Source of the DNA: a virus
Length of the DNA stretch: 62,625 nucleotides
Strand: one strand, 5' to 3'
Virus record (IMG/VR): IMGVR_UViG_3300035490_000346
Span: 1-62,625 of that record
The position numbers and the translations under genes are program-made. Positions 10,174 to 48,143 of this stretch are shown piece by piece. The notes below the pieces were generated by a model, which was given only the letters and a program-made list of their open reading frames with translations, was not told where the DNA came from and did not search any database. Position 1 is the stretch's first letter, and each line of letters starts with the position of its first letter.

Positions 10174-10372
10174 CACCTGCTCCGGAGGCACGGGCACCTG
10201 CTCCAGCAGGGCGGTGCTGACCGCCGAGACAGAGGACGGGCGCACCATCGGCAGGGAGCTGGACTTCAGCAGCGATGCCCTCACCTCGGTGAAGTACGGG
10301 GCGTACCTCGTCATCCAAGGGCTGGCAGAGATACAGATGGAGGAGAGGACCGAGCGGCATGAACAAGCCTAG
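10154..10372 (+). CDS. Unknown 72-residue protein
   Basis: It starts inside the preceding gene and ends 14 bases inside the NMN adenylyltransferase gene. Two cysteines and a beta-rich stretch are visible in the first half. Heavy overlap on both sides is typical of this block and implies coupled translation. No family recognised. Confidence 0.5.
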   Translation: MRNIRLNTCSGGTGTCSSRAVLTAETEDGRTIGRELDFSSDALTSVKYGAYLVIQGLAEIQMEERTERHEQA

Positions 10373-11354
10373 CTACGGCGTCATAGTCGGCAGGTTCCAG
10401 TGCCACGAGCTGCACGACGGGCACATGGAGCTGTTCCGCATCGTGCGCGGCCGCCACAGCCGGGTAATCGTGTTCCTGGGCTGCAACAGGGTTGGCCCCA
10501 CGAGGCACGACCCCCTGGACTTCGAGGTGCGCAAGCGCATGATTCAGGCGAAGTTCCCCGAGTTCACCGTCCTGCCCCTCCGGGACAAGAAGACCGACGA
10601 GGAGTGGAGCAGGGAGCTGGACTCCCGCATCTCCGATGCCGTGGGGGAGGTCCCCGCCGAGGTCGTGCTCTACGGGAGCCGGGACTCGTTCGCCCCCTAC
10701 TACCACGGCACGCACCCTGTCAGGGAGCTGGAGATATTCAACGTCCCCAAGGCGGTCAGCAGCACGGAGGTCCGTGCCACCCTGACCAACACCGTCATGG
10801 AGTCCGCCGACTTCCGGGCAGGGGCCATCTACGCCATGGGGCAGCTATGGCCCAGGGTCGTCACCGTGGTGGATATCGCCATCGTCCATGATTGCAGGCT
10901 GGGCCTAGGCTCCGATGCCCCAGGGGCCGGGCTGATGCTCCTAGTCGGGAAGAAGCCGGACGACATCCTCTGGCGGTTCCCTGGCGGGCATGCGCTCTTC
11001 ACCACCGACTCCTTCGAGGCGGACGCCAAGAAGGAGGCCTTCGAGGAGACGGGGCTCGATGTCGATAGCCTGGAGTACATCGGCTCCCGCAGGGTGGATA
11101 GCTGGCGCTGGAAGGGCGAGCCCTCCGAGGGCTACAAGACCCTGTTCTTCGTCGCCGAGAGCATGGCGATGGGCGGGCACGGGTCGGACGACCTTTCCGA
11201 GACCAAGTGGTTCCGTATCGACGACCTGGCCGAGGAGGACTTCGAGAAGGAGCACAGGCCCCTCTTCAGGATGCTGCTCGGCCATGTCACCAGCAAGTGG
11301 GGATACAGCCTGAGGAAGAAGGAGGAGGAGCATGCCACAGCCGTTGAAGGTTAA
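10359..11354 (+). CDS. natV: Bifunctional NMN adenylyltransferase / Nudix hydrolase
   Basis: The N-terminal domain begins with VGRFQ and carries the nucleotidyltransferase HxGH motif (HDGH, residues 19-22) and the SSTEVR signature near 133-138, so it should join NMN to ATP to make NAD+. The C-terminal domain has a Nudix box from about residue 207 (PGGH...EAFEETGL), with Lys in place of the usual Arg. The same two-domain order is known in phage KVP40 NatV and in bacterial NadM-Nudix proteins. The neighbouring nicotinamide phosphoribosyltransferase supplies the substrate, and the two genes overlap by 23 bases. Nudix substrate (ADP-ribose is common) is inferred. Confidence 0.92.
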   Translation: MNKPSYGVIVGRFQCHELHDGHMELFRIVRGRHSRVIVFLGCNRVGPTRHDPLDFEVRKRMIQAKFPEFTVLPLRDKKTDEEWSRELDSRISDAVGEVPAEVVLYGSRDSFAPYYHGTHPVRELEIFNVPKAVSSTEVRATLTNTVMESADFRAGAIYAMGQLWPRVVTVVDIAIVHDCRLGLGSDAPGAGLMLLVGKKPDDILWRFPGGHALFTTDSFEADAKKEAFEETGLDVDSLEYIGSRRVDSWRWKGEPSEGYKTLFFVAESMAMGGHGSDDLSETKWFRIDDLAEEDFEKEHRPLFRMLLGHVTSKWGYSLRKKEEEHATAVEG

Positions 11355-12765
11355 CCCCCTGGACAGGGACGACAGCTACAAGGACTCCCACTGGTTCCAG
11401 CTCCCCAAGGACACGGAGCACGTGTACAGCTACCTTGCGTCCCGTGGGGGGTTCTGGAAGCACACCATGTTCTTCGGCCTCCAGTACTACCTGGCGGCCT
11501 ACCTGGAGGGGAAGGTGTTCGGCCCGGACGACGTCACCGAGGCGGCCGACCATGCCAAGGCGCACTTCGGCCAGGACGGCATCTTCAACCGTAACGGGTG
11601 GATGCGCCTCTATGCCAAGCACGGCGGCAGCCTGCCGCTGCGCGTCCGGGCTGTCCCGGAGGGCACCGTCGTCCCCGTCAAGAACGTCCTGATGACCATC
11701 GAGAACACGGACCCCGAGTTCCCATGGCTCACCAACTGGGCAGAGACGCTGCTGCTCAAGGTCTGGTACCCTATCACCGTGGCTACCCTATCCTTCGAGA
11801 TAAGGCAGGCCATCGGGGAGGACCTTGCCCGTACCGGCACCCCCTCCCTGCTGGACTTCAAGCTGCACGACTTCGGCTACAGGGGGGTCTCGTCCGAGGA
11901 GACGGCAGCGATAGGCGGTGCCGCCCACCTGGTCAACTTCCTGGGCACCGACACCAAGGCCGCCCTGGCGATGCTGAGGCAGTACTACGACAAGCCGATG
12001 GCGGGGTTCAGCATCCCTGCCATGGAGCACAGCACCGTCACTACCTGGGGCGAGGACAACGAGGGGGATGCCTACGAGAACATGCTCAATGCCGTCCCCA
12101 AGGGGCTGGTGGCCTGCGTGATAGACAGCTACGATATCTACCGGGCTGTCCGGGAGATATTCGGCGACCGGCTGCGGGAGCACGTGCTGCGCCGTGACGG
12201 CGTGGTGGTGCTGCGCCCGGACAGCGGCGAGCCTACCGTCATCCTTGAGGACGTGTTCAACATGGTGGCGGAGAAGTTCGGGTTCGAGACGCACCCCAAG
12301 GGCTGGAAGCTGCTGCCCGCGCAGATTAGGTGCATCCAGGGCGACGGCGTCAACTACCAGAACATCCTCCGTATCAACTCGCACCTCACCCGTGCGGGCT
12401 GGAGCATGGACAACTGGGGCTACGGGATGGGCGGGGCGCTCCTCCAGCAGCTAAACCGCGACACCCAGCGCTTTGCCCTCAAGTGCTCTGCCGTCCGCAG
12501 GAGCGGCTTCTGGGAGGATGTTTACAAGACTACCAAGGCGGACCCGAGCAAGGCCAGCATGGCGGGGCGGTTCGACCTGCTGCGCTACCCTGACGGGGAG
12601 CTGGAGACGGTCGAGTCGGATAGCTGGGACCCGCGCAGCCAGCCCGGCTGCACCAACGCCCTGGAGACGGTGTTCGAGGACGGGGCCGTAAAGCGCCACC
12701 AGACCCTTGACCAAGTAAGGGAGATTGCACGCACCTATGACCGGTTCAAGGAGGAGGAGCAGTGA
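11332..12765 (+). CDS. nadV: Nicotinamide phosphoribosyltransferase (NAMPT family)
   Basis: This 477-residue protein has the length and signatures of NAMPT/NadV. They include GGFWKHTMFFGLQYYL near residue 40, the catalytic-His region FSIPAMEHS around 225-233, RPDSGEP near 294 for phosphoribosyl binding, and GDGVNY followed by a YGMGG loop. It transfers phosphoribose from PRPP to nicotinamide, giving NMN. With the preceding adenylyltransferase it forms a complete two-step NAD+ salvage route, the pathway described in KVP40 and in phages that resist NAD+-depleting defences. It overlaps the upstream gene by 23 bases and the downstream gene at GTGA. Confidence 0.93.
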   Translation: MPQPLKVNPLDRDDSYKDSHWFQLPKDTEHVYSYLASRGGFWKHTMFFGLQYYLAAYLEGKVFGPDDVTEAADHAKAHFGQDGIFNRNGWMRLYAKHGGSLPLRVRAVPEGTVVPVKNVLMTIENTDPEFPWLTNWAETLLLKVWYPITVATLSFEIRQAIGEDLARTGTPSLLDFKLHDFGYRGVSSEETAAIGGAAHLVNFLGTDTKAALAMLRQYYDKPMAGFSIPAMEHSTVTTWGEDNEGDAYENMLNAVPKGLVACVIDSYDIYRAVREIFGDRLREHVLRRDGVVVLRPDSGEPTVILEDVFNMVAEKFGFETHPKGWKLLPAQIRCIQGDGVNYQNILRINSHLTRAGWSMDNWGYGMGGALLQQLNRDTQRFALKCSAVRRSGFWEDVYKTTKADPSKASMAGRFDLLRYPDGELETVESDSWDPRSQPGCTNALETVFEDGAVKRHQTLDQVREIARTYDRFKEEEQ

Positions 12766-13216: not shown

Positions 13217-13761
13217 AACCCACAGTCCTGGCAGTATTTGCATTCCTCCTGCTGTCCCTCGCCCCGGCATGGGCGCAGAACGACGGCGACCAGCTTGTCC
13301 AGGTCCCCAAGAAGTATGTCTCGGCGGAGGGCCTCAGCCACTCCCAGGCCCCCAGGGTATCGGACGAGGTCCAGAAGTGGAAGGACATCGGGCAGGGCAT
13401 AGGAGTGACCTTCAGGGAGGCCCTCAATGCCGCTGTGGACACCGCTGACAAGTTCGGCACCACCAGGGTGGGCATCTTCATCATGGTCATGGTGGCATGG
13501 CGGATAGTCGGCAAGGACTTTGCCGGGATGGCTCTCGGCATACCGTTCCTGCTCGCCGGGAGTGCCCTCTTCCTCTACCTGCTGCGCAGGCTGTTCTTCG
13601 GTTACCAGGTCCCCAAGAGGGCGGGGCTGTTCACCAGGGAGTACGCGGAGCATGCGCCCTACCACTTCGAGTCGAAGGAGGCACGCATAACGGCGGCGAT
13701 AGCCGTAGGCCTGGCCTACTGTATCCTTGTCCTCGCCATGCTCATCGTCATATTCCCATGA
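13213..13761 (+). CDS. Exported membrane protein, 182 aa
   Basis: A signal peptide is clear: Lys start, a hydrophobic core and an AWAQ cleavage region at residues ~18-22. After a polar domain come hydrophobic helices at about 95-125 and 158-180. It therefore has a periplasmic or outer portion and two or more membrane spans. GGAGACCGT upstream supports ATG 13213. It sits between another membrane protein and the RNA ligase. Role unknown. Confidence 0.6.
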   Translation: MKPTVLAVFAFLLLSLAPAWAQNDGDQLVQVPKKYVSAEGLSHSQAPRVSDEVQKWKDIGQGIGVTFREALNAAVDTADKFGTTRVGIFIMVMVAWRIVGKDFAGMALGIPFLLAGSALFLYLLRRLFFGYQVPKRAGLFTREYAEHAPYHFESKEARITAAIAVGLAYCILVLAMLIVIFP

Positions 13762-14366
13762 AGCAGTACCCTGAGATTCCCGGAAGCACGCACGCCCCCC
13801 TCGGGGTGCCGTGCATAGCCTTCGAGAAGTACGACGGCTCCAACCTCAGGTGGGAATGGTCGAGGAAGAGGGGCTGGCACAAGTTCGGCACCCGCACGCA
13901 GCTATTCGACCGTACGGACCCGCTCTACGGGCAGGCGATACCCATATTCCTCGGCACTATGGGGGACGAGATTGCCCGCCGCTCCAACGACATAGAGCGG
14001 GGGGTCCAGAGGGTCATCTGCTTCACGGAGTTCTTCGGCCCCGGCAGCTTCGCGGGCAAGCACGTGCAGGACGAGCCCAAGGAGCTTAGGCTTATCGACA
14101 TGAACCTCTACAAGCGGGGCCTGATGGACCCCCGCCTGTTCGCCAGGTCCTTCGGCGACCTCCCCTGGTGCGCCAGGGTAGTCTACCAGGGCAACCTTAA
14201 CCGCCCGCTCATCGAGGACGTGAGGAAGGGCGTGTACCCCGTATGGGAGGGGGTCGTGGCGAAGGGCGACGGCTTCATGGTCAAGATCAAGACCCTTGCC
14301 TACCTTGCCCGGCTGAAGGAGGTCTTCGGCGGCCGGGCGGAGGACTTCGGCAAGTACTGGGAGTAA
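13758..14366 (+). CDS. RNA ligase of the Rnl2-like nucleotidyltransferase family
   Basis: The adenylation motif I is EKYDGSN, with the nucleophilic lysine at residue 24. Motif III is FTEFFGPGSFAG near residue 90, motif IV is WEGVVAKG near 163, and motif V is MVKIKT near 175. These define the ATP-dependent ligase superfamily, and the short 202-residue length with EKxDGSN is typical of phage and small RNA ligases. It would seal 3'-OH/5'-phosphate RNA ends, for example in tRNAs cut by host defence. The start overlaps the previous gene by four bases. Confidence 0.85.
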   Translation: MKQYPEIPGSTHAPLGVPCIAFEKYDGSNLRWEWSRKRGWHKFGTRTQLFDRTDPLYGQAIPIFLGTMGDEIARRSNDIERGVQRVICFTEFFGPGSFAGKHVQDEPKELRLIDMNLYKRGLMDPRLFARSFGDLPWCARVVYQGNLNRPLIEDVRKGVYPVWEGVVAKGDGFMVKIKTLAYLARLKEVFGGRAEDFGKYWE

Positions 14367-14833: not shown

Positions 14834-16501
14834 TTAGCTATAAGACTGCACGAAGCCGGTGACCCCGAAGGCCCTCCCTATCGGAGTGGGGGTCACTGCC
14901 GGCCCGTAGCCAGCCACGGCGGTGCTGGTTATCTCCAGCCTGACCAGCCTGGTGACCAGCGGCACGTAGACCTTCCAGTCGGCCATGGCGGCGATGCTCA
15001 CGCTGTAGACGTACTGGGGGGCGGTGCCGGACAGGTCGCGCTGCGTCCCCCGGTAGGAGCGCCGGGCCTCGAATATGGTCACCCCGTCCGCCTCCATGTC
15101 CTCCCGCCTCATCACGAGGAGCTGCTGCTTGAGCAGCTCGCTCAGGTCCGAGGAGGTCTGTAGGTCGTTGGACCGCACGTCCAGGGTAAAGTCGATGTTC
15201 TCCTTGGAGCCGTATACCTCGTAGGTCTCGCACGTGTCGGGGGACACGATTATGGCCACCTGGTCCCCTACCACCACGTTGTCCCCTATCGCTACCCTGA
15301 GGCCGGGTATGAGCTGCTCGTTGGTGCGGTACTTCCTGCCCTCGACCTCCCCCCGGCCGGTCAGTATCCTTACCTCCCACAGGCACCACTCCCCTGGCAG
15401 CAGCAGCCTGGGCAGCGTTATCGTGCCGTTGCTGTCCACCGTCGCGGAGTAGTAGTCGCCGTAGGCGGTATGGATGAACACCTGGTTTTCTGCCAGGGAC
15501 TCCCCCGGCCTGACGCCTGCCTGCAATATGTCCTCCTGGTTGGTGCCGGGGACATCCAGGGGGTTGGCCTTTACCACTGTCCTGGCCGTGATGGTCATGC
15601 CCGCCGGGGTCCACGCGGACAGCTCCACCCAGTGGTTGGAGGCATACCAGGCGTAGTCCTTCCCTAGCTGAAGCTCGTACCCCGTCTGGTCAACGAGGGA
15701 GAACGACACCAGGGTGCTCATCTCCTGCGGGGGGCTGGAGCCCGGCACGGGCACCATCCCCTGGGGGATGTTCGCCACCTCGGAGCCCCCTACGGTGCTG
15801 GCGATGATGACCTGGTCAACCTCCTGCTGGTACCAGTAGTCCACCAGCGGGACCAGGGGGGCAGGGGGGGAGCCCGCGTACAGGGTAAGCCCGGAGAGGG
15901 TGGGGGTAAGAAGGTAGCCTATCCTGGGGGAGAGCAGCAGGTCCACGGGCACCATGGGGCTGCCGGTGACGGTAGGGAAGCTGCCGTCGTTCACGGCGGT
16001 CACCAGGGGGGTAGGGGGGCTTCCCCTCCCCTCCACGTAGCCGGACAGCGTGGTGCCGTCTATGCCTGGGGCCAGGTAGACCAGGGAGCCCTGGGCGTTG
16101 GTCACCTTCCCCTCCTCCCAGCGGAACTGCTCCATGGTCAGCCTTACCCTGTTGTCCCGGTCGTCCACGGAGTCTACGTTGAGGTAGTAGGTCCCGGCCA
16201 CGGGGGTCTGCTTGGTACGGTCTATCTCCTGGAGCCACTCTATGAAGGAGCCGTCATGGTGCTCAATCTTGGCGAGTATGGCCCTCCCGTACTGCTTGGT
16301 CATGAAGTAGTCGGGGGAGAGGCGGTTGCCTGCCGAGGACACGTCCCTGATGCTGACCTGCGCGTCCTTCCACTGGATGAGGTTGTTGAAGGGGGTGGTT
16401 ACCTCGCCGAGCGTCTCCCTGAACCGGGGGCTGCGGCTGACGGCATCCTCTATGATGCGGCGTATGTAGGCAATCAGGTTCCCGCCCGTAAGGTCGAGCA
16501 T
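14834..16501 (-). CDS. Virion structural protein (tail/neck or baseplate type), 555 aa
   Basis: The protein is beta-rich, with many Gly, Thr, Val and Pro residues and almost no Lys clusters, like phage tail and baseplate components. An N-terminal helical part (residues 1-50) precedes repeated strand/loop modules. It is translated from ATG 16501 behind AAGTAGGAGACAGCC, a late-type start also seen at other virion genes. It lies in the same transcript as the 439-residue structural protein (18702) and the fusion protein (16920). The exact position in the particle cannot be told from sequence. Confidence 0.6.
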   Translation of the reverse strand: MLDLTGGNLIAYIRRIIEDAVSRSPRFRETLGEVTTPFNNLIQWKDAQVSIRDVSSAGNRLSPDYFMTKQYGRAILAKIEHHDGSFIEWLQEIDRTKQTPVAGTYYLNVDSVDDRDNRVRLTMEQFRWEEGKVTNAQGSLVYLAPGIDGTTLSGYVEGRGSPPTPLVTAVNDGSFPTVTGSPMVPVDLLLSPRIGYLLTPTLSGLTLYAGSPPAPLVPLVDYWYQQEVDQVIIASTVGGSEVANIPQGMVPVPGSSPPQEMSTLVSFSLVDQTGYELQLGKDYAWYASNHWVELSAWTPAGMTITARTVVKANPLDVPGTNQEDILQAGVRPGESLAENQVFIHTAYGDYYSATVDSNGTITLPRLLLPGEWCLWEVRILTGRGEVEGRKYRTNEQLIPGLRVAIGDNVVVGDQVAIIVSPDTCETYEVYGSKENIDFTLDVRSNDLQTSSDLSELLKQQLLVMRREDMEADGVTIFEARRSYRGTQRDLSGTAPQYVYSVSIAAMADWKVYVPLVTRLVRLEITSTAVAGYGPAVTPTPIGRAFGVTGFVQSYS

Positions 16502-16919: not shown

Positions 16920-18698
16920 CTACCAGCTACTACCCTGCCCTAGCCTCGTGTCGGTCACCTGGTCGATGTCGCCCACGTTCGTCTCCTTGTCCATTATCTT
17001 GACGGGCAGGGCGCTGTAGTCAACGCCGGGCGGCGGCGGCGGCACGGTCTGGGTGATAGGCTCAATCCACTGGTGGATAGAGCGCCGGATGTCCCCGATG
17101 GACACGAACCAGCTAATCCTCGGGTACCAGCGGTTCTCTATCTGTATCTTGCCTCCACCGTCGTAGTACAGGATGTTCCACTCGCTGCCGTCATGGGCCT
17201 GGAACACGGCACCGGGCAGCATGTAGGCGAAGAAAATCTCGTCCCCCTCTATCGGCGACAGGGGGTTGGGGAGCTGCAAGGTGCCGGGGTTGGGCTTGAA
17301 CTGGGCGAACGTGCTGGTGCGCACGTCGTCCGGGTCCCCCACGATGGCCTGTAGCTCCTGGTCTGGGTTCGGGTGGTCTTCCTCGCACAGCACCCTGGCC
17401 GTCTTGGCCAGGTCGGCGGTCAAATCCTTGGCTTCCATTCCCATAGCCGTCCCTCTCTTAGTCTCGGCAACCAAGCTGCCGAGCAGGCCCACGCCTCTCT
17501 TATGGGTTGGATAGTCCCTATCCTCGCCATCCTTCCCCCCCTCCGCCTCCTGGATTCTCTCGTCCACGGCATCGTCGTCCAGCGACCTCAGGGCCCAGTT
17601 CTTGTCCTCAAGCCGTATCTCCACCACCTGGCCGGGGGACGGCCCTCCCCCCTGGGGTATCTTCCTGGGGTCCCCGTCCGTCAGGATGCACGGCAGGGCG
17701 AGCTGGAGGCGGGAGTGGCTGAAGGCGGCCACGCTCCCCCCCGTCTCCTCGAACACCTTCTTGGCCCTCTCCTGGAGCCAGTGGACTATCTTTACCGCCC
17801 GGTCGTAGAACTCCCTGTAGGGCCTGCCCCCAGGCGGGGCCTTCTCCATGCCCTGCTGGAGCGCCAGCATCTCCCCCTCGTGGTCCCGCACGTAGTCCCC
17901 GGACCACTTCCCCAGGTCCCAGGGGCGCAGGTTGGGGATAAGGTAGAGAGCGGCCCCGGTCGCCCTTGCCACCTCCCTGGCGGTCTCGGCCGCCCTGTCC
18001 AGGTCGGACGAGTATATCTCCTTTACATCCAGGCTCTTGAACTTCTTGGCGTCCTCCCTGGCCTCCCTCTTCCCCTCCTCGTCCAGGGGGACGTTGGCCC
18101 ATCCCCGGATGCGGCTGTCGAGGGAGTCCCCCGTGGTGGTGTTGTAGGGGGTATGCCCGTGCCGCCCGAAGTAGACCGTGGGCTTGCCCTCCCCGGACGC
18201 GGTCCGCCTGTGCGTGGAGAAGGCAGTCCTCCTGGCCTCCCTGATGGCCTCCTTTACCCCCCCGAGGGGGGTGCCCCCCCAGTCCATGATAACTCCCTTG
18301 CCCTCGTCGAACATATAGGCCATGTCCTCCCAGCCGGGGCCAGCGCTTGCCATGGGCCTCCACCCGTGCCAGAAGACCTCTATATCCCCAGGGGGCACGG
18401 GCCTCTCCACGAAGAACTCGCCTGCGTCCCCCCCGCTCCTGGCATCCCCCAGGCTGGGTGCCCCTACCCGCAGGATGACGGGCTGGTATGCCGGGATGGT
18501 CCCCCAGGTCTCCAGGTCGTGCCGGAATATAATCTCCCCGAAGTACCAGGCATCCTTCAGGGTGCTGGAGAAGAACACCTTGCCGAGCGAGCCTGCCCCG
18601 AGGTCCCCGCCCCAGTTCGTATCCTCCGAGGGCCTTAGCCCCTCCCTCTGGATTCCTGGGATGCGGCTGGCAGGGGTACAGTGGTATAGGTACCTCAT
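16920..18698 (-). CDS. ADP-ribosyltransferase-like / histidine phosphatase / virion-domain fusion
   Basis: Three regions can be seen. Residues 1-~120 start with YLYHCTP (His 6), followed by EGLRPS, GKVFFSS and a GEFFVERPVPPGDIEV segment. This recalls the KptA/ART-like fold, whose active site uses His and a late Glu, with NAD+ as substrate. Residues ~172-350 are a histidine phosphatase: GRHGHT near 178, SSDLDRAAETA, and a second His in AFSHSR near 328. From Met 419 a separate beta-rich virion-like domain begins. An AGAGAGGGAC ribosome site stands directly before Met 419 (base 17444), so a 174-residue protein could also be made alone. ART assignment is by pattern. Confidence 0.65.
   Translation of the reverse strand: MRYLYHCTPASRIPGIQREGLRPSEDTNWGGDLGAGSLGKVFFSSTLKDAWYFGEIIFRHDLETWGTIPAYQPVILRVGAPSLGDARSGGDAGEFFVERPVPPGDIEVFWHGWRPMASAGPGWEDMAYMFDEGKGVIMDWGGTPLGGVKEAIREARRTAFSTHRRTASGEGKPTVYFGRHGHTPYNTTTGDSLDSRIRGWANVPLDEEGKREAREDAKKFKSLDVKEIYSSDLDRAAETAREVARATGAALYLIPNLRPWDLGKWSGDYVRDHEGEMLALQQGMEKAPPGGRPYREFYDRAVKIVHWLQERAKKVFEETGGSVAAFSHSRLQLALPCILTDGDPRKIPQGGGPSPGQVVEIRLEDKNWALRSLDDDAVDERIQEAEGGKDGEDRDYPTHKRGVGLLGSLVAETKRGTAMGMEAKDLTADLAKTARVLCEEDHPNPDQELQAIVGDPDDVRTSTFAQFKPNPGTLQLPNPLSPIEGDEIFFAYMLPGAVFQAHDGSEWNILYYDGGGKIQIENRWYPRISWFVSIGDIRRSIHQWIEPITQTVPPPPPGVDYSALPVKIMDKETNVGDIDQVTDTRLGQGSSW
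17445..17460 (-). promoter_or_regulatory. Internal ribosome site for a nested 174-aa product
   Basis: On the minus strand AGAGAGGGACGGCT stands directly before ATG 17444, in frame with the fusion gene. It matches the AGAGAGG-type sites of neighbouring late genes. The next codons (MGMEAKDLTADL) look like a natural N-terminus. A TAA in another frame lies just upstream, as at a normal gene junction. Confidence 0.5.
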
Positions 18699-18701
18699 GC
18701 C

Positions 18702-20021
18702 CTATGCCTCTATCCTCCCGAAGGTTACCGTCCTGCCGATGGGCACCTCGACCGTGTTCTCCCAGGGCTCGCGTCCGGGCAGGGTCTCCCTGGCATCGAA
18801 GAGCGGCTCCCCGTCCCCCCTCGGGTGGTGGGGGTCGAGGCCCTGGTCGGGGTTGTCCCTTACCACAGGGTTGTAGAGCGTGGGCAGGCCCGTGTTGATG
18901 GGGATAAGGTAGCGGGTGTCGCCGGGCTTCAGCAGCTCGGTGTCGAAGTCCTGCTGGAGGAGTATCCCCCTGGGCATCTTCGAGGTTACTCCGTGGATAA
19001 TCAGCCTGTCCCCGTTCCTCCTGACGATGAGGTCTCCGTCCTGCACGATGGGGGTGTTGGTCAGGTAGCTGCGGCTCTCCCTGGCTGCCTTTATGCCCCC
19101 TCCCTCGTCCAGCTCGCGCACCAGGGCGGTGTCCGGGGGCACGTACAGGATGTCGTAGGGGCCGTAGTACCCCCCCACTATCCCGACCTCGAAGCACGAC
19201 TTGCAGCCATGGCGGGGGGCACCGAGGCCGGACTCCGGGCGGGTGCAGCCGCAGGGCTCCCCCCTCGTCCGCCTGAACAGGATGTAGGCCGGCTCCCCTA
19301 CCTGCTCGAATATCCAGTGGTTGCGCCTTACCATCTCGGCGTACTCCCAGGTCATGCTGTCCACCTCCTGGGTGTTCACTACCCTCGTGCCGGGAGCGCC
19401 GGGCGCATGAAGCTCCCCGTGGTCCCCGACAGGCACGATGGTATAGAACTGCCGGACCATGGAGGTATAGATGTCCACGTAGTTCTCCAGGCGCTTGTAG
19501 GTCACCTCGAACTTCTGTATCCCGGAGTAGTCCACCACGCTGACATTCTCCGTGTAGACCTGGGCCTGGTCCGAGACCGCCCCTCCCCTCGGGAGGTCGT
19601 TGTCGGCCGGCAGGTAGACGGCATAGTCGAGGGGCACCACGGCTATGGGGCGTACCTCCACGGTCTCGTTGGAGGGGGTAGTCAGGACGACCCTGACGTC
19701 ATCGGGGCTGGTGGCCAGCTTTGGCCGTGCCGCCACGATGTCGGAGTAGGGTGCCTCGGGGAGCCGAAACCTCCACGTGCCCATCGTCCCCCTGTCAATC
19801 CAGTCCCCCGGCCTCACCTCGTAGGTCACCTCCTCCAGGGCCGCCTGGTCCCTCCAGAAGTGCCCCTTCCATGCCCCTCCCCGGTTCAGCCTCTTCCAGT
19901 TGCTCGGGTAGTCGTGCGCCCTGTAGATATTGTACCCTTTCGTTGCCTCGGGGTCGTCTATCCACCAGAGGTCGCGGCTCCCCACATAGCTGGAGTTAAG
20001 GACGAGAATCTCGTTTACCAT
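18702..20021 (-). CDS. Virion structural protein, 439 aa
   Basis: The protein is beta-rich and aromatic, with a long series of short strands, a CGCTRP...CKSC cysteine group near residues 255-275 (likely one zinc site), and a Pro/Gly-rich C-terminus. It opens the minus-strand virion transcript and ends three bases before the start of the fusion gene, so they are coupled. Composition and context point to a tail or neck component; homology was not recognised. Confidence 0.6.
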   Translation of the reverse strand: MVNEILVLNSSYVGSRDLWWIDDPEATKGYNIYRAHDYPSNWKRLNRGGAWKGHFWRDQAALEEVTYEVRPGDWIDRGTMGTWRFRLPEAPYSDIVAARPKLATSPDDVRVVLTTPSNETVEVRPIAVVPLDYAVYLPADNDLPRGGAVSDQAQVYTENVSVVDYSGIQKFEVTYKRLENYVDIYTSMVRQFYTIVPVGDHGELHAPGAPGTRVVNTQEVDSMTWEYAEMVRRNHWIFEQVGEPAYILFRRTRGEPCGCTRPESGLGAPRHGCKSCFEVGIVGGYYGPYDILYVPPDTALVRELDEGGGIKAARESRSYLTNTPIVQDGDLIVRRNGDRLIIHGVTSKMPRGILLQQDFDTELLKPGDTRYLIPINTGLPTLYNPVVRDNPDQGLDPHHPRGDGEPLFDARETLPGREPWENTVEVPIGRTVTFGRIEA

Positions 20022-20389: not shown

Positions 20390-21394
20390 ATGGCAAAAGC
20401 AGCAAGGACCGTAGCGGATATCGCCAGCCAGCTCAGCGCTGTGCTCAAACCGCAGCCCGCCAATGCCCCCCAGGCCGCCCCCAAAGAGAAGGTCTATGTC
20501 AGCAAGGCAACATGGACCGGCACTATCTCGGTCGCCCCTGGCCTTGCCTTTAAGGCGAAGCTCTACAAGGCCACCAACGACCCCACGGAAGGCTTCAAGT
20601 CCAACATGGTACACCAGTGCTCCGCCGCCGCCAATGACGGGACCGTGGAGTACTCGCAGCTAAAGCAGGGCAGCATGAAGTGCTCCGTGTGCGGCGTCGA
20701 TGTCCCCAAGGAGAGCGTCCAGAAGGGCATCCCCAATGGCGATGGCACCTTCACCATCATCAGCGATGACGAGAAGAAGTCCTGCATGGTCCGCTCCGAG
20801 GGCGAGATGCAGGTCCTCCGCCTTGTCCCCTCCCGCGATGTTGACCCTATCTACTTCGACGGCGCGTCCGAGTTCCTGGGGCCCGAGAAGGGTGCCGAGA
20901 AGTTCTATGTCGGGCTGCGCAAGATGCTCGGCAAGGGCCTTGTAGCCCTCGCCGTGAACGTCCAGCGCGGGCAGGAGTACATGCTGGTCCTCCGCCCCTA
21001 CGGCAAGGACGGCATCATCGCCAACTACATCCGCCGCGAGCACGAGGTCCGTGCGTGCGACAAGTTCCCCATGGTCGCCCTGAGCCAGCAGGAAGAGGGG
21101 CTCTTCTCGCAGCTAGCCGATGCCCTGACGGGCAGGTTCGACACCGAGGAGTTCCCTGACACCTACGCCAGCAACCTGCGCGGGCTTATCGTTGCCAAGC
21201 AGTCCGGCACCGCTGCCCCCGTGGTCGAGAAGCAGGCCCCCGCCGCCGTGGCGGTTGACCTGATGGCGGCCCTCCAGGCATCCATCAACGCCGCCAAGGC
21301 GAAGCAGGGCGGCCAGCCTGTCGCCGTTGCCGAGCAGCTTATCGCCGAGAAGGCCGCCGAGGCCAATACCGCTGCCAAGTTCGCTATCAACTAG
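20390..21394 (+). CDS. ku: Ku-like DNA end-binding protein
   Basis: Residues ~42-205 follow the bacterial Ku core: WTGTISVAPGLAFKAKLYKAT at the start, a CSVCG zinc-knuckle-like remnant near 99-102, a VQKG turn, a SDDEKK segment, VDPIYFDGASEFLGP around 151-165, the K-x-Y helix and LRPYGKDG. Ku rings thread onto DNA ends and recruit ligase in non-homologous end joining. The 334-residue length is near bacterial Ku (~270-300) with an N-terminal extension of ~40 and an Ala-rich C-terminal tail. The next gene is an ATP-dependent ligase, the normal partner. Phage Ku proteins are known (Mu Gam, mycobacteriophage Omega and Corndog). Confidence 0.88.
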   Translation: MAKAARTVADIASQLSAVLKPQPANAPQAAPKEKVYVSKATWTGTISVAPGLAFKAKLYKATNDPTEGFKSNMVHQCSAAANDGTVEYSQLKQGSMKCSVCGVDVPKESVQKGIPNGDGTFTIISDDEKKSCMVRSEGEMQVLRLVPSRDVDPIYFDGASEFLGPEKGAEKFYVGLRKMLGKGLVALAVNVQRGQEYMLVLRPYGKDGIIANYIRREHEVRACDKFPMVALSQQEEGLFSQLADALTGRFDTEEFPDTYASNLRGLIVAKQSGTAAPVVEKQAPAAVAVDLMAALQASINAAKAKQGGQPVAVAEQLIAEKAAEANTAAKFAIN

Positions 21395-37767: not shown

Positions 37768-38670
37768 ATGGCCTTTCCAAAGACGGCGAACGCGATAGTC
37801 CGGGAGCCGGTCCTCTCCCCGCATGACTGGGAGAATGCCTGGGGGGGCCTCGCCTTCCATATCCCCCTGTCCCCCGAGGCCAAGGGCTTCTGGAAGACCG
37901 CCTCGTCCGCCCAGAGCAAGTACCTCCTGAGCCACTGCACCATCATGTCCTCCGTCGCCACCGAGGAGGAGCCCTACGACTTCCTTATCCGCCCGGCCAG
38001 CGCCCACCTGGTGAACAACAACGACGATGCCTGGTCCAACGATGTCATGAAGATGTCCCACAGGACCTTCGTGGGGGCCTTCAACTTCGTGGAGCACTTC
38101 CAGAACTCGAAGTATGCCAAGGGCCACATCATCGACAGCATCCTCAGGAAGATACACCTCACGCAGGACCCCAGGGACAGCGTCTACTTCGTGGACATCC
38201 TGGTCGCCACGGACCTCAGCCACAAGAAGCTGGCGGCCGACATACGCACCGGCAAGGTCAAGTACCTCAGCATGGGCTGCGTGACGGACCTGGTCATCTG
38301 CTCCTTCTGCGGCCAGAGGGTGGCCGATGCAGGCTCCTACTGCCACCACCTCCAGTTCAGCAAGGGGGCGTTCCTGCCCGACGACGACGGGGTGCCCAGG
38401 CGGATAGCCGAGCTTTGCGGCCACAAGTCCCTGCCGGGCGGCGGCGTGCGCTTCGTGGAGGCGTCCTGGGTACAGACCCCGGCGTTCCCAGGGGCGGTCA
38501 AGAGGTCCATAGTGTCGGAGGAGTGGATAGGCCCTGCCACCCAGTACACCAGGCAGGTATCGGCCTCGGGGGAGGAGTTCGCCAAGGCAGCCTCGGAGAA
38601 CGATGACTACCAGGGCCTTAATGTAGGAGAGTACCTCCTCTCCATGGATGACGGGAGGAACCTACGGTAA
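37768..38670 (+). CDS. Prohead (capsid maturation) protease
   Basis: The protein starts with a strand region (GLAFHIPLSP) and has LSHCTIMSS near residue 55, a VEHFQ His near 109, and KYLSMGCVTDLV near 166-175. LSMG with an upstream His is the catalytic Ser/His pattern of herpesvirus-like phage prohead proteases (HK97 gp4 / T4 gp21 relatives). A CSFCGQ...CHH zinc-like insert follows the serine. The gene precedes a scaffold-like protein and the capsid gene, the standard order. It would cleave the scaffold and capsid N-termini during maturation. Confidence 0.68.
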   Translation: MAFPKTANAIVREPVLSPHDWENAWGGLAFHIPLSPEAKGFWKTASSAQSKYLLSHCTIMSSVATEEEPYDFLIRPASAHLVNNNDDAWSNDVMKMSHRTFVGAFNFVEHFQNSKYAKGHIIDSILRKIHLTQDPRDSVYFVDILVATDLSHKKLAADIRTGKVKYLSMGCVTDLVICSFCGQRVADAGSYCHHLQFSKGAFLPDDDGVPRRIAELCGHKSLPGGGVRFVEASWVQTPAFPGAVKRSIVSEEWIGPATQYTRQVSASGEEFAKAASENDDYQGLNVGEYLLSMDDGRNLR

Positions 38671-44993: not shown

Positions 44994-47900
44994 ATGCCTG
45001 TCCAGGTCCCGACCATCGTGCAGTCCGTGTTCACGAGGGTGGACAATGCCCTGTCGGCCACCCTTAGCCTGCCCTATGCCTGCGTTACGGGCAACTCCAC
45101 CCTTCTCATGGGGCTGGGGGGCGACAGCTTCTTCCCGGTAAGGACCCAAGTGCCCCCCGGGCCCCCATGGGCTACCTGGGTCGGACTTGCCTTCGACTAC
45201 TCTATCGCACCGTACGGGACCTTCGGACAGGTCCTCTCGTGGAGCCATCTCGTGGCCGACGGCGACGACTCCCAGCACGTGGAGGTAGTGACCTTCTCGC
45301 GCCTCTGGCCAGCGATAAGCTGGGGGCTCTTCGAGATTACGGGCGACATCCGGCTTGCGACCATCACTACCTCGATATTGCCAGACGTGTACGGCGGCCA
45401 CAGCCACGACCCCAACTGCTGGAACCCCTCTGCCTCCTACTCTGTCGGTAACGTGGTTAGCTGGATAGCCTATTCCTGGACCTGCACCGTCCCGAACATC
45501 GACCAGGAACCGTATGCCGGGTCTAGCTACTGGGCCCGTGGGGGGTCGAGCGCCAGCACCACCCTTGCGACCGCTGAGATATCCAATCCCGGCGAGTCGC
45601 TCTGCATCGGGGGGTTCACCTGGAAGAGCGCCGACACCAGCACCAACCCCTCCCCCTCTCCCTATGTGTGGGTCAACCGCTCCAACGGCGACCCGGCCGG
45701 GGACAACTCCATCTTCTTCGCCGCCACTGGCAACCCCCTGCCCGATACCGCCGTCTCCGTCACCCTTCCCAACGCCGCCCACTGGGTGACCGGCTGGGTC
45801 CTCATCTCCGTCTACTCCTCGTCCACTACAGTCATCACCAGCAACAGCCCCTCCATATCCGGGACCTCCGTGACGTTCACGGCCACCGTCACCACCACCC
45901 AGGGGGGAGACCCTACGGGGACCGTCACCTTCAGCGACAGCCTGGGGAGCTTCAGCCCCCAGACGGTGCCCCTCTCCGGGGGGCAGGCCCAGTTCAGCAC
46001 CTCTGCCCTCTCGGTGGATTCCCATACCATCACGGCGGCCTACAACGGGGACAGCAGCCATGCCAGCAGCCTCGGCACGGTAGCCCAGAGCGTGCAGTAC
46101 GCTACCCCCTCCGTGGCCGTCCTGAGCAGCCTCAACCCGTCCCTCACCGGCGACCCCGTCACCTTTACCGTGAACGTCACGGGGGGGTACGGGACGCCGA
46201 CCGGGAGCGTGCTGCTGTCCGACGACCTGGGGAGCTTCAGCCCCCAGACCTTGCCCCTCGTCCTGGGCTCCGCCCAGTATACGGCCCCCTCCCTGGGCCT
46301 GGACTACCATAACATATCCGCCGCCTACAGCGGGGACGGGGTGTATGCCCCCCTGGCCGCCGTCCTGGTGCAGCAGGTCGTCCCCAAGTACGACCCCGTG
46401 GTAGCGATGACCAGCAGCAACGACCCCCAGTCCTTCGGGCAGGAGTTCACCCTTACCATAACGGTAGGGCCCTCGTCCGGGGGGCCGGTCCCGACCGGGA
46501 CGGTAGGCCTCACGGACACCGTCCTGGGAGACCTCGGCACCTATCCCCTTGTCTCCGGGGCGGCTACCTACACCATGGACCTCCTCTCCCCCTGGGCGGT
46601 GGGCAGCCACATCGTCACGGCAGCATACGGCGGGGACAGCAGCTACAACACGGGCACGGCGTCCCTTGTCGAGCTTATAACCGTGGCCTCCAGCCTCGTG
46701 TACGCCGACCTCCCCGGCTTCGCCCTGGTGGCGTCCTACTCCCCCGAGGGGGACGAGGGCCTCCCTGCCTGGGCATCCTTCTCTGCCAGCCCCGACCCGG
46801 CCGACCAGGGCCAGGAGGTCTACCTGCTGTGGACCAGCGCCAATATCGCCTCCGTCAGGATATACGGCAGCAACGGGACGGACTCCCTGGACACGGGGGT
46901 GCTCCAGGCCTCCGGCCCCGGCCTCTATGCCGTGGCCAGCGGCTTCCAGCACAGCATCACCCTCTCCTGCCTTGCCTATGACGCCAGCGGCAACACGGTG
47001 GCCTCCCAGCCCTTGACCGTCACCGTCATCTCGGCCCCGGAGCTGGACAGCCTCTCCCCCCCGTCTGCCACCGAGGGCTCTACCGCGCAAACCCTGGACC
47101 TGATGGGGAGCTACTTCACGCCGGACTGCACGGCGACCTACAACGGCACCCCGCACACCGTATCCTACATAGGCCCCACGGAGCTGTCTATCCCGCTGAC
47201 GGACGGGGACCAGGCGACCCAGGGCAGCTATCCCGTGGTCGTGACCAATAGCATAGGCTCTTCCGACCCTGTCGATTTCCTGGTCACCTCCGTCTCCCCC
47301 TACCCGGACCTCCCGCCCTTCGTCCAGAGCAATATGGCCGGGAGCCCCCAGGTGCCCAACCCGGTCACTGTCCCCTACCTCCAGGACACCACGAACGGCA
47401 ACTTCCTGCTGTGCTTTGTCGCCAGCCAGGATGCCTCCGCCCCCCCTATCTCCGACACCCTCGGGAGCCCCTGGACCCTGGTCGGCAGCCACCACGGGCT
47501 CGGGTCTAACTATCCCTATGCCTATGTGTTCGCGGTCTATAACAGCGACACGTACGGCGGTCCCGACACGGTCCAGGTCGGGGCCAGCGACGGGGTGCCC
47601 CGCATGGTCCAGATATGGGAGTTCCAGGTAGGCTATGCGCTTGACACTATCACCTGGAACGACACTGCGGTAAACGGCAGCGGGAGCGTATCGACGGGCA
47701 CTACAACGATGACCCATGACTACGACCTGGTACTGACCCTCTTCGTAGACGAGGACCAGGGTGCCAGGACTGTCCCGATACCCGGCACCAGCTTCCAGGG
47801 ATGGAGCGGGCAGGAGTACCAGGCACCGTCGCCGGCCGGCAGCATGCAGGTGTTCGAGCCCTGCCCTGGGACCACGATAGGCAGTTGCGGGGACGCCCCG

Positions 47901-48143
47901 CACTTCCTGACGGCCTGGCAGGCGGGCAAGCAGTACTACGCCGGGAACGAGGTCGTGGACGCAGGCAGCCATTGGCTGTGCGCCTACGACAACATAGGCT
48001 CGGAGCCCAGCATAGTGAACCCCAACTGGCAGTTGGTCGGGAGCGGCTCCGGGGTGTACTCGGACGAGCGCACCGTAAGCGGGCTCTCCGGCACTGCCAA
48101 CTTCGTCTCGGCCATCATCGCGTTCCGGCCCTTCTTCGTATAG
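44994..48143 (+). CDS. Ig-like repeat surface protein / putative adhesin, 1049 aa
   Basis: Domains in order: N-terminal globular region (1-~135); a carbohydrate-binding-module-like WNPSASYSVGNVVSW...YW segment (~142-182); three bacterial Ig-like (Big_3-type) repeats ~280-560, each with a TxTGTVxxxDxxG...PLxxGxAxYT...GxHxITAAYxGDSSY pattern; a further Ig-like part (~595-680); an IPT/TIG-like domain (~685-765) starting LDSLSPPSATEGS; a jelly-roll-like region; and a second carbohydrate-binding-like WQAGKQYYAGNEVV near 980. Such proteins decorate phage heads or tails and bind cell-surface glycans. It ends the capsid-side operon. Confidence 0.75.
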   Translation: MPVQVPTIVQSVFTRVDNALSATLSLPYACVTGNSTLLMGLGGDSFFPVRTQVPPGPPWATWVGLAFDYSIAPYGTFGQVLSWSHLVADGDDSQHVEVVTFSRLWPAISWGLFEITGDIRLATITTSILPDVYGGHSHDPNCWNPSASYSVGNVVSWIAYSWTCTVPNIDQEPYAGSSYWARGGSSASTTLATAEISNPGESLCIGGFTWKSADTSTNPSPSPYVWVNRSNGDPAGDNSIFFAATGNPLPDTAVSVTLPNAAHWVTGWVLISVYSSSTTVITSNSPSISGTSVTFTATVTTTQGGDPTGTVTFSDSLGSFSPQTVPLSGGQAQFSTSALSVDSHTITAAYNGDSSHASSLGTVAQSVQYATPSVAVLSSLNPSLTGDPVTFTVNVTGGYGTPTGSVLLSDDLGSFSPQTLPLVLGSAQYTAPSLGLDYHNISAAYSGDGVYAPLAAVLVQQVVPKYDPVVAMTSSNDPQSFGQEFTLTITVGPSSGGPVPTGTVGLTDTVLGDLGTYPLVSGAATYTMDLLSPWAVGSHIVTAAYGGDSSYNTGTASLVELITVASSLVYADLPGFALVASYSPEGDEGLPAWASFSASPDPADQGQEVYLLWTSANIASVRIYGSNGTDSLDTGVLQASGPGLYAVASGFQHSITLSCLAYDASGNTVASQPLTVTVISAPELDSLSPPSATEGSTAQTLDLMGSYFTPDCTATYNGTPHTVSYIGPTELSIPLTDGDQATQGSYPVVVTNSIGSSDPVDFLVTSVSPYPDLPPFVQSNMAGSPQVPNPVTVPYLQDTTNGNFLLCFVASQDASAPPISDTLGSPWTLVGSHHGLGSNYPYAYVFAVYNSDTYGGPDTVQVGASDGVPRMVQIWEFQVGYALDTITWNDTAVNGSGSVSTGTTTMTHDYDLVLTLFVDEDQGARTVPIPGTSFQGWSGQEYQAPSPAGSMQVFEPCPGTTIGSCGDAPHFLTAWQAGKQYYAGNEVVDAGSHWLCAYDNIGSEPSIVNPNWQLVGSGSGVYSDERTVSGLSGTANFVSAIIAFRPFFV

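What the first reader, a model, noticed from the sequence alone, without database searches (positions are those of the whole stretch)
16920..18698. ART-like domain fused to histidine phosphatase and a virion domain
One frame joins an ADP-ribosyltransferase-like region (YHC start, late Glu), a histidine phosphatase with both histidines, and a beta-rich virion-type domain that has its own ribosome site. If translated as one protein, the enzyme pair could travel in the particle and act in the host at infection, like T4 Alt. The RNA ligase at 13758 raises a second possibility: KptA-like removal of RNA 2'-phosphate. I know of no described protein with this exact order.
Basis: inference. Interest (0 to 1): 0.7.

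Follow-up and report, generated by a model that had tools for sequence, protein, structure and literature searches.

The report
Enzyme cargo fused to phage neck protein
A huge soil phage carries an ADP-ribosyltransferase-like domain and a phosphatase welded in frame onto a small tail/neck protein that related phages make on its own, which looks like an interchangeable way of mounting enzymes on the virus particle so that they can be carried into the host.

Summary
The 592-aa frame (16920-18698, minus) is real and found almost letter for letter in a second contig. It has three parts: residues 1-157, an ADP-ribosyltransferase (ART)-like domain; 175-375, a histidine phosphatase (HP; Pfam E 2e-29); 419-592, a small conserved protein (CT). 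CT is a stand-alone gene between minor-tail and tail-terminator genes in jumbo phage Tunturi_5 and many huge-phage contigs. So this is cargo fused to a conserved neck-region protein. The slot upstream of CT is variable: empty, ART-HP, HP only, ART only, unrelated domains, or homing endonucleases. HP, ART and two unrelated domains join CT in frame with no stop; endonucleases are always separate genes. CT's own leader and ATG survive inside the fusions, so full-length and 174-aa products are both plausible. One relative (L007) has the HP circularly permuted with all catalytic residues kept; I found no such report. ART assignment rests on remote profile similarity (hhalign 72-80%, shuffles at most 4%) plus conserved His6/Glu98. 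KptA function is not supported: the N-lobe and its catalytic residues are missing. Virion location and delivery are inferred, not shown. Verdict: new variant of the known polyvalent/MuF-ART theme.

The parts
16920..18698 (-). 592-aa fused frame ART-like + histidine phosphatase + CT neck-region protein
   Evidence: same frame in L002
18228..18698 (-). ART-like domain, residues 1-157 (H6, Y52, E55, E98 invariant in 5 divergent copies)
   Evidence: A4 alignment; hhalign to Tpt1 ART lobe 80% and to a phage PARP-like protein 72%, controls below 4%
17574..18176 (-). histidine phosphatase branch 1, residues 175-375 (R179 H180, R235, H328)
   Evidence: Pfam PF00300 E 2.1e-29; PhoE 1h2e E 5e-10; NCBIfam TIGR03162 E 8.5e-14, below its curated cut-off
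17445..17573 (-). HP-to-CT linker, residues 376-418, in frame; longer than in relatives (47 vs 29 aa counted from the SLDD/TLDD motif)
17445..17460 (-). internal leader taagagagggacggct, matching the leader of stand-alone CT genes
   Evidence: energy not exceptional
16920..17444 (-). CT domain, 174 aa from the internal ATG; stand-alone gene in Tunturi_5 (gp323) and many huge-phage contigs
18192..18698 (-). segment absent in L004 and replaced by an HNH endonuclease gene in L005 (insertion slot); HP's own ATG is missing at its 3' edge
18702..20021 (-). MT: 439-aa gene, 49% to Tunturi_5 gp322 'minor tail protein'
14834..16501 (-). TT: 555-aa gene, 40% to Tunturi_5 gp324 'tail terminator'

Best explanation
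The ORF is a modular cargo-carrier protein of a huge phage related to an Acidobacteriota myophage. The carrier (CT, residues 419-592) is a conserved neck/tail-junction protein that most relatives encode alone. Upstream of it lies an exchangeable slot into which enzyme domains have been inserted in frame without a stop, here an ART-like domain plus a histidine phosphatase. CT's own leader and ATG remain inside the fusion, so the gene most likely makes two products: abundant 174-aa CT that builds the structure, and a smaller amount of the 592-aa form that sits in the same structure with its enzymes attached. The enzymes then most likely act at or just after entry, with the ART using NAD+ to modify a host target and the phosphatase removing a phosphate from a nucleotide, ribose-phosphate or protein substrate. 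Shown: the modular frame, its conservation, carrier independence, slot variability, purifying selection on HP and CT and, less firmly, ART. Inferred: internal initiation, virion incorporation, delivery, enzyme activity and targets.
For: CT is a separate 159-aa gene in Tunturi_5 between 'minor tail protein' and 'tail terminator', close to the tail sheath gene, and stands alone in many other lineages. ART-HP-CT, HP-CT and ART-CT are each one open frame in diverged lineages. The HP-CT linker has the same length (29 aa) in five of six HP lineages although its sequence differs, and 47 aa in the window, still in frame. Unrelated domains in L027 and L047 are also in frame with CT, while all five endonuclease insertions (L005, L012 group, L036, L044, L049) are separate out-of-frame genes. 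The leader of stand-alone CT genes (L021, L022) closely matches the fused linker DNA. dN/dS is 0.09-0.26 for HP and 0.01-0.27 for CT; ART is 0.03-0.38 where measurable. Profile similarity of ART to Tpt1 and PARP-like proteins beats 200/200 shuffles. L013/L014 flanks are 93-95% identical but ART only 82%, so the module is exchanged. The window carries NAMPT and cytidylyltransferase-NUDIX genes, so NAD+ supply is part of this phage's programme. Published precedent: ARTs packaged in phage heads or fused to head proteins (PMC5512222, PMC9503650), and single genes with an internal in-frame start in endolysins (PMC9430671).
Against: No proteomics, so neither product has been seen. SD pairing energy at the internal ATG is ordinary for this frame (25% of codon positions as strong). 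CT's role rests on gene position and on Tunturi_5's deposited annotation; no family model hits CT itself. The ART evidence covers mainly residues 2-84, and the catalytic Glu assignment (E98) is uncertain. In the window the HP has lost its own start, so HP alone is not made there. L067 has an uncharacterised repeat ORF in the slot that is not fused.
Confidence: 0.6

Rival explanations
1. ART-HP is a soluble enzyme pair that happens to overlap CT in frame: translation of CT starts mainly at 17444, or the long protein is cut by the phage head protease, so the enzymes never enter the particle and act late in the infected cell.
For: CT's own start is preserved in every fusion examined; a gene scoring as head maturation protease is in the window (37768-38670); no virion data exist.
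Against: If the link were irrelevant, stops and frameshifts should appear in the linker; none did in any of the HP-CT lineages examined, nor after in-frame absence of HP in L014. Endonucleases in the same slot do keep stops.
Confidence: 0.25
2. The N-domain is a KptA/Tpt1-type RNA 2'-phosphotransferase working with the RNA ligase at 13497-14366 in RNA repair.
For: Weak hits to RNA 2'-phosphotransferase families (Pfam 0.29, NCBIfam 0.013, PHROG 0.28, PDB 0.31) and hhalign 80% to the ART lobe.
Against: The Tpt1 N-lobe with LRHxP and RxxxGHS is absent, and the RHxHLS Arg is replaced (GKVFF/GRVFL). PF01885 finds nothing in the window. The similarity is to the shared ART core; a PARP-like phage protein scores about the same.
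Confidence: 0.04
3. The ART-like domain is a decayed or non-enzymatic passenger dragged along by homing endonucleases in a recombination hotspot; only CT matters.
For: GIY-YIG and HNH genes sit in the same slot; the ART module is swapped between close relatives; E94 is not conserved.
Against: H6, Y52, E55 and E98 are invariant across copies 44-54% identical to the window's. dN/dS of the two closest copies is 0.03, though dS is near saturation. Reading frames stay intact in every copy.
Confidence: 0.11

Closest known systems
Phage polyvalent proteins and MuF/portal-ART fusions (Iyer 2017, PMC5512222; PMC9503650)
   Same: ART and other enzymes fused to, or encoded beside, virion proteins and thought to be injected. 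Tunturi_5 gp321, just upstream of the homologous minor-tail gene, is itself polyvalent (ART-PolyVal E 6e-48, 2H, GNAT).
   Different: The carrier here is a small neck-region protein with no MuF/portal family hit, cargo is at its N-terminus, the carrier's own start is preserved inside the fusion, and the cargo includes a histidine phosphatase, a term absent from both papers.
T4 Alt
   Same: A phage ART expected to act at infection.
   Different: By published account (PMC5512222) Alt is packaged into the head and injected; here the ART is covalently joined to a neck-cluster protein. No Alt/VIP2 family hit was obtained.
Tpt1/KptA RNA 2'-phosphotransferase
   Same: ART-core similarity over residues 2-84.
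   Different: No N-lobe and none of the N-lobe catalytic motifs.
Histidine phosphatase branch 1 (PhoE, CobC, Gpm-like)
   Same: Full-length Pfam match; RHG and second His present.
   Different: Fused between ART and a virion-cluster protein; circularly permuted in L007.
Two-product endolysin genes with an internal in-frame start (PMC9430671, PMC4777826)
   Same: One frame, shared stop, internal start producing the C-terminal part alone.
   Different: Endolysins are lysis enzymes; here the C-terminal part is a presumed structural protein.

Membership tests
ART superfamily | ART core fold | not testable with these tools
   structure prediction switched off
ART superfamily | Profile similarity to known ARTs above controls | tested here: met
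   hhalign 80% (Tpt1) and 72% (phage PARP-like) vs shuffles at most 3.65%, reversed at most 0.33%, unrelated profiles at most 0.5%; single-sequence segments of two other ARTs (Tunturi_5 gp321) were not matched (0.2%)
ART superfamily | Conserved H in strand 1 and catalytic acid late in the domain | tested here: inconclusive
   H6 and E98 invariant in 5 copies; E94, which by memory of PARP/DarT motifs is the better-placed position, is not
Tpt1/KptA | N-lobe with LRHxP and RxxxGHS plus RHxHLS | tested here: not met
Histidine phosphatase branch 1 | Family profile, RHG motif, second His | tested here: met
Histidine phosphatase branch 1 | Phosphatase activity | not tested
   bench work
Polyvalent/virion-borne effector | Multidomain protein encoded among late structural genes | tested here: met
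   between MT and TT homologues of Tunturi_5 structural genes
Polyvalent/virion-borne effector | Presence in the virion and transfer to the host | not testable with these tools
   needs proteomics
MuF/portal-ART fusion | MuF or portal domain | tested here: not met
   no such Pfam, PHROG or NCBIfam hit in P0001 or in stand-alone CT

The most novel reading that the evidence does not exclude
A general two-start display system: huge phages keep a neck protein gene with its own internal start and swap enzyme modules onto its N-terminus, so that each particle carries a few enzyme-bearing subunits among plain ones. In one lineage the mounted histidine phosphatase has been naturally circularly permuted and may still be active.
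Probability: 0.4. Interest if true: 0.75.

Novelty: new variant of a known kind. Interest (0 to 1): 0.6.

Why it matters
It would show that enzyme mounting on virions is not limited to MuF, portal or head proteins but can use a small neck protein as a plug-in socket, with the unfused carrier guaranteed by an internal start. That gives a simple route to find new injected effectors: read the N-terminal extensions of this carrier across huge phages. The permuted phosphatase would be a natural circular permutation in a very common enzyme fold.

Tried and rejected
KptA reading: rejected on missing N-lobe motifs. Genome-contig scans with ART and CT profiles found no bacterial relatives. A first 36-row alignment placed ART fragments on CT and was discarded. 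SD energy as proof of an internal start: not exceptional, so not used. hhalign against Tunturi_5's own ART-PolyVal and DUF3990 segments as single sequences gave 0.2%, so no closeness to that ART family. Literature search for circular permutation with histidine phosphatase: none in the held library, which is incomplete.

Full report
Observation. The minus-strand frame 16920-18698 encodes 592 residues from an ATG. The window is an IMG/VR virus record of unnamed origin. The frame recurs in contig L002 with at least one residue change in the phosphatase. Pfam gives His_Phos_1 over 175-375 at E 2.1e-29 and nothing for the two ends.

The C-terminal part is an independent gene. tblastn against phage records found residues 412-567 in Tunturi_5, a 309-kb myophage of an Acidobacteriota host (PMC11924767). 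There it is gp323, 159 aa, alone between 'minor tail protein' gp322 and 'tail terminator' gp324, with the tail sheath (gp326) close by. The window's neighbours are their homologues (49% and 40%). A profile scan brought in 60 viral loci on contigs up to 463 kb. In many of them CT stands alone. I infer a neck or tail-junction protein.

The slot between the minor-tail gene and CT varies. Contents: no recognisable cargo (Tunturi_5, L021, L022, L025, L030, L041, L045, L048, L060, L064); ART-HP-CT (window, L018, L012 group); ART-permuted HP-CT (L007); ART-CT (L014); HP-CT (L003, L004, L019); HNH gene then HP (L005, contig ends inside CT); GIY-YIG gene before ART (L012 group) or before CT (L036, L049); HNH before CT (L044); unrelated domains fused to CT (L027, L047). 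L062/L066 have about 110 extra residues in CT's N-terminal part. With the patterns used, HP and ART relatives of this type were found in viral contigs only in this slot.

Frame evidence. ART-HP, HP-CT, ART-CT and the L027/L047 domains are all in frame with no stop. The five distinct endonuclease insertions are all separate genes in another frame. One repeat ORF (L067) is unfused. Counting HP, ART, L027 and L047 as fused against L067, and five endonucleases as unfused, Fisher's one-sided p is about 0.02 (my arithmetic; few and partly related events). Linker lengths vary only by multiples of three. The minor-tail gene keeps its stop wherever it was read. In L014 the HP is absent in frame and ART joins CT directly.

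Internal starts. The leader before the CT ATG in fusions (L012 gactatacaagccataagagaggaacgccc) closely matches that of stand-alone genes (L022 gactattcagaccataagagaggaaccgct). The protein linker DYxxHKRGTxM is therefore a translated leader. HP also keeps an in-frame ATG with a purine-rich leader in L012, L018 and L007, but not in the window, where ART-HP must be made as one piece. Pairing energy at the window's CT start is unremarkable; conservation, not strength, is the argument.

ART domain. Single members hit PARP (0.049), DUF7002 (0.23) and RNA 2'-phosphotransferase models weakly. The five-member profile matched the ART lobe of Tpt1 at 80%, and at 72% a Vibrio phage protein that itself scores PARP at E 1.5e-5; none of 200 column shuffles reached either score. 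The match covers residues 2-84. H6, Y52, E55 and E98 are invariant. Tpt1's N-lobe motifs are absent. I hold ART fold likely (about 0.8), ART activity plausible (about 0.6), KptA activity unlikely (0.04). These are judgements.

Phosphatase. R179, H180, R235 and H328 are conserved; nearest models are CobC/PhoE/Gpm-like, below the curated equivalog cut-offs, so no substrate can be named.

Permuted phosphatase. In L007 the order is ART, then the HP C-terminal piece with THS, then the N-terminal piece with RHG, then CT, in one frame. Both pieces match HP at 45-48%, and DNA alignment shows the swapped order. Tandem duplication with complementary loss would explain it: the start MPKD resembles the MPTKD/MPDK starts of normal copies. 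It is on one contig only.

Selection and exchange. dN/dS is 0.09-0.26 for HP and 0.01-0.27 for CT; ART is 0.34-0.38 for the window pairs that are not saturated, and 0.03 for L012/L014 with dS near saturation. L013 and L014 are 93-95% identical around the slot but 82% in ART, so the module is exchanged.

Mechanism. Best reading: a plug-in enzyme on a neck subunit, with plain CT from the internal start, acting at entry. The window's NAMPT and cytidylyltransferase-NUDIX genes show NAD+ supply is part of this phage's programme; a direct link to ART is inference.

Known ground. Head-packaged and MuF-fused ARTs and polyvalent proteins are described (PMC5512222, PMC9503650), and Tunturi_5 carries a polyvalent protein two genes upstream of CT. 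Internal in-frame starts are known for endolysins. No held paper combined ADP-ribosyltransferase, histidine phosphatase, phage and fusion. Hence a new variant of a known kind.

Noticed in passing
L007:2924-3586: Histidine phosphatase in circularly permuted order (second-His piece before RHG piece), catalytic residues kept.
   Followed up: partly
window 10359-12765 (+): NUDIX/cytidylyltransferase-like gene followed by nicotinamide phosphoribosyltransferase (PHROG 448 E 1e-145): an NAD+ salvage pair.
   Followed up: partly
window 20390-21394 (+): Ku-like DNA end-binding protein (Pfam Ku E 4.7e-17), divergent from the minor-tail gene.
   Followed up: no
L008:4557-8645 (Tunturi_5 gp321): Annotated as MutT/NUDIX hydrolase, but Pfam finds ART-PolyVal (6e-48), 2'-5' RNA ligase, GNAT and SprT-like domains: a polyvalent protein.
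   Followed up: partly
window 44994-48143 (+): 1049-aa protein with bacterial Ig-like domains (Big_3_5, E 5e-40).
   Followed up: no
L067:5547-5954: ORF of short repeats (KQRWPEAEPMIRT...) in the slot, not in frame with CT.
   Followed up: no
L019:2638-3048: A second, distant histidine phosphatase match (29%) upstream of the minor-tail gene.
   Followed up: no
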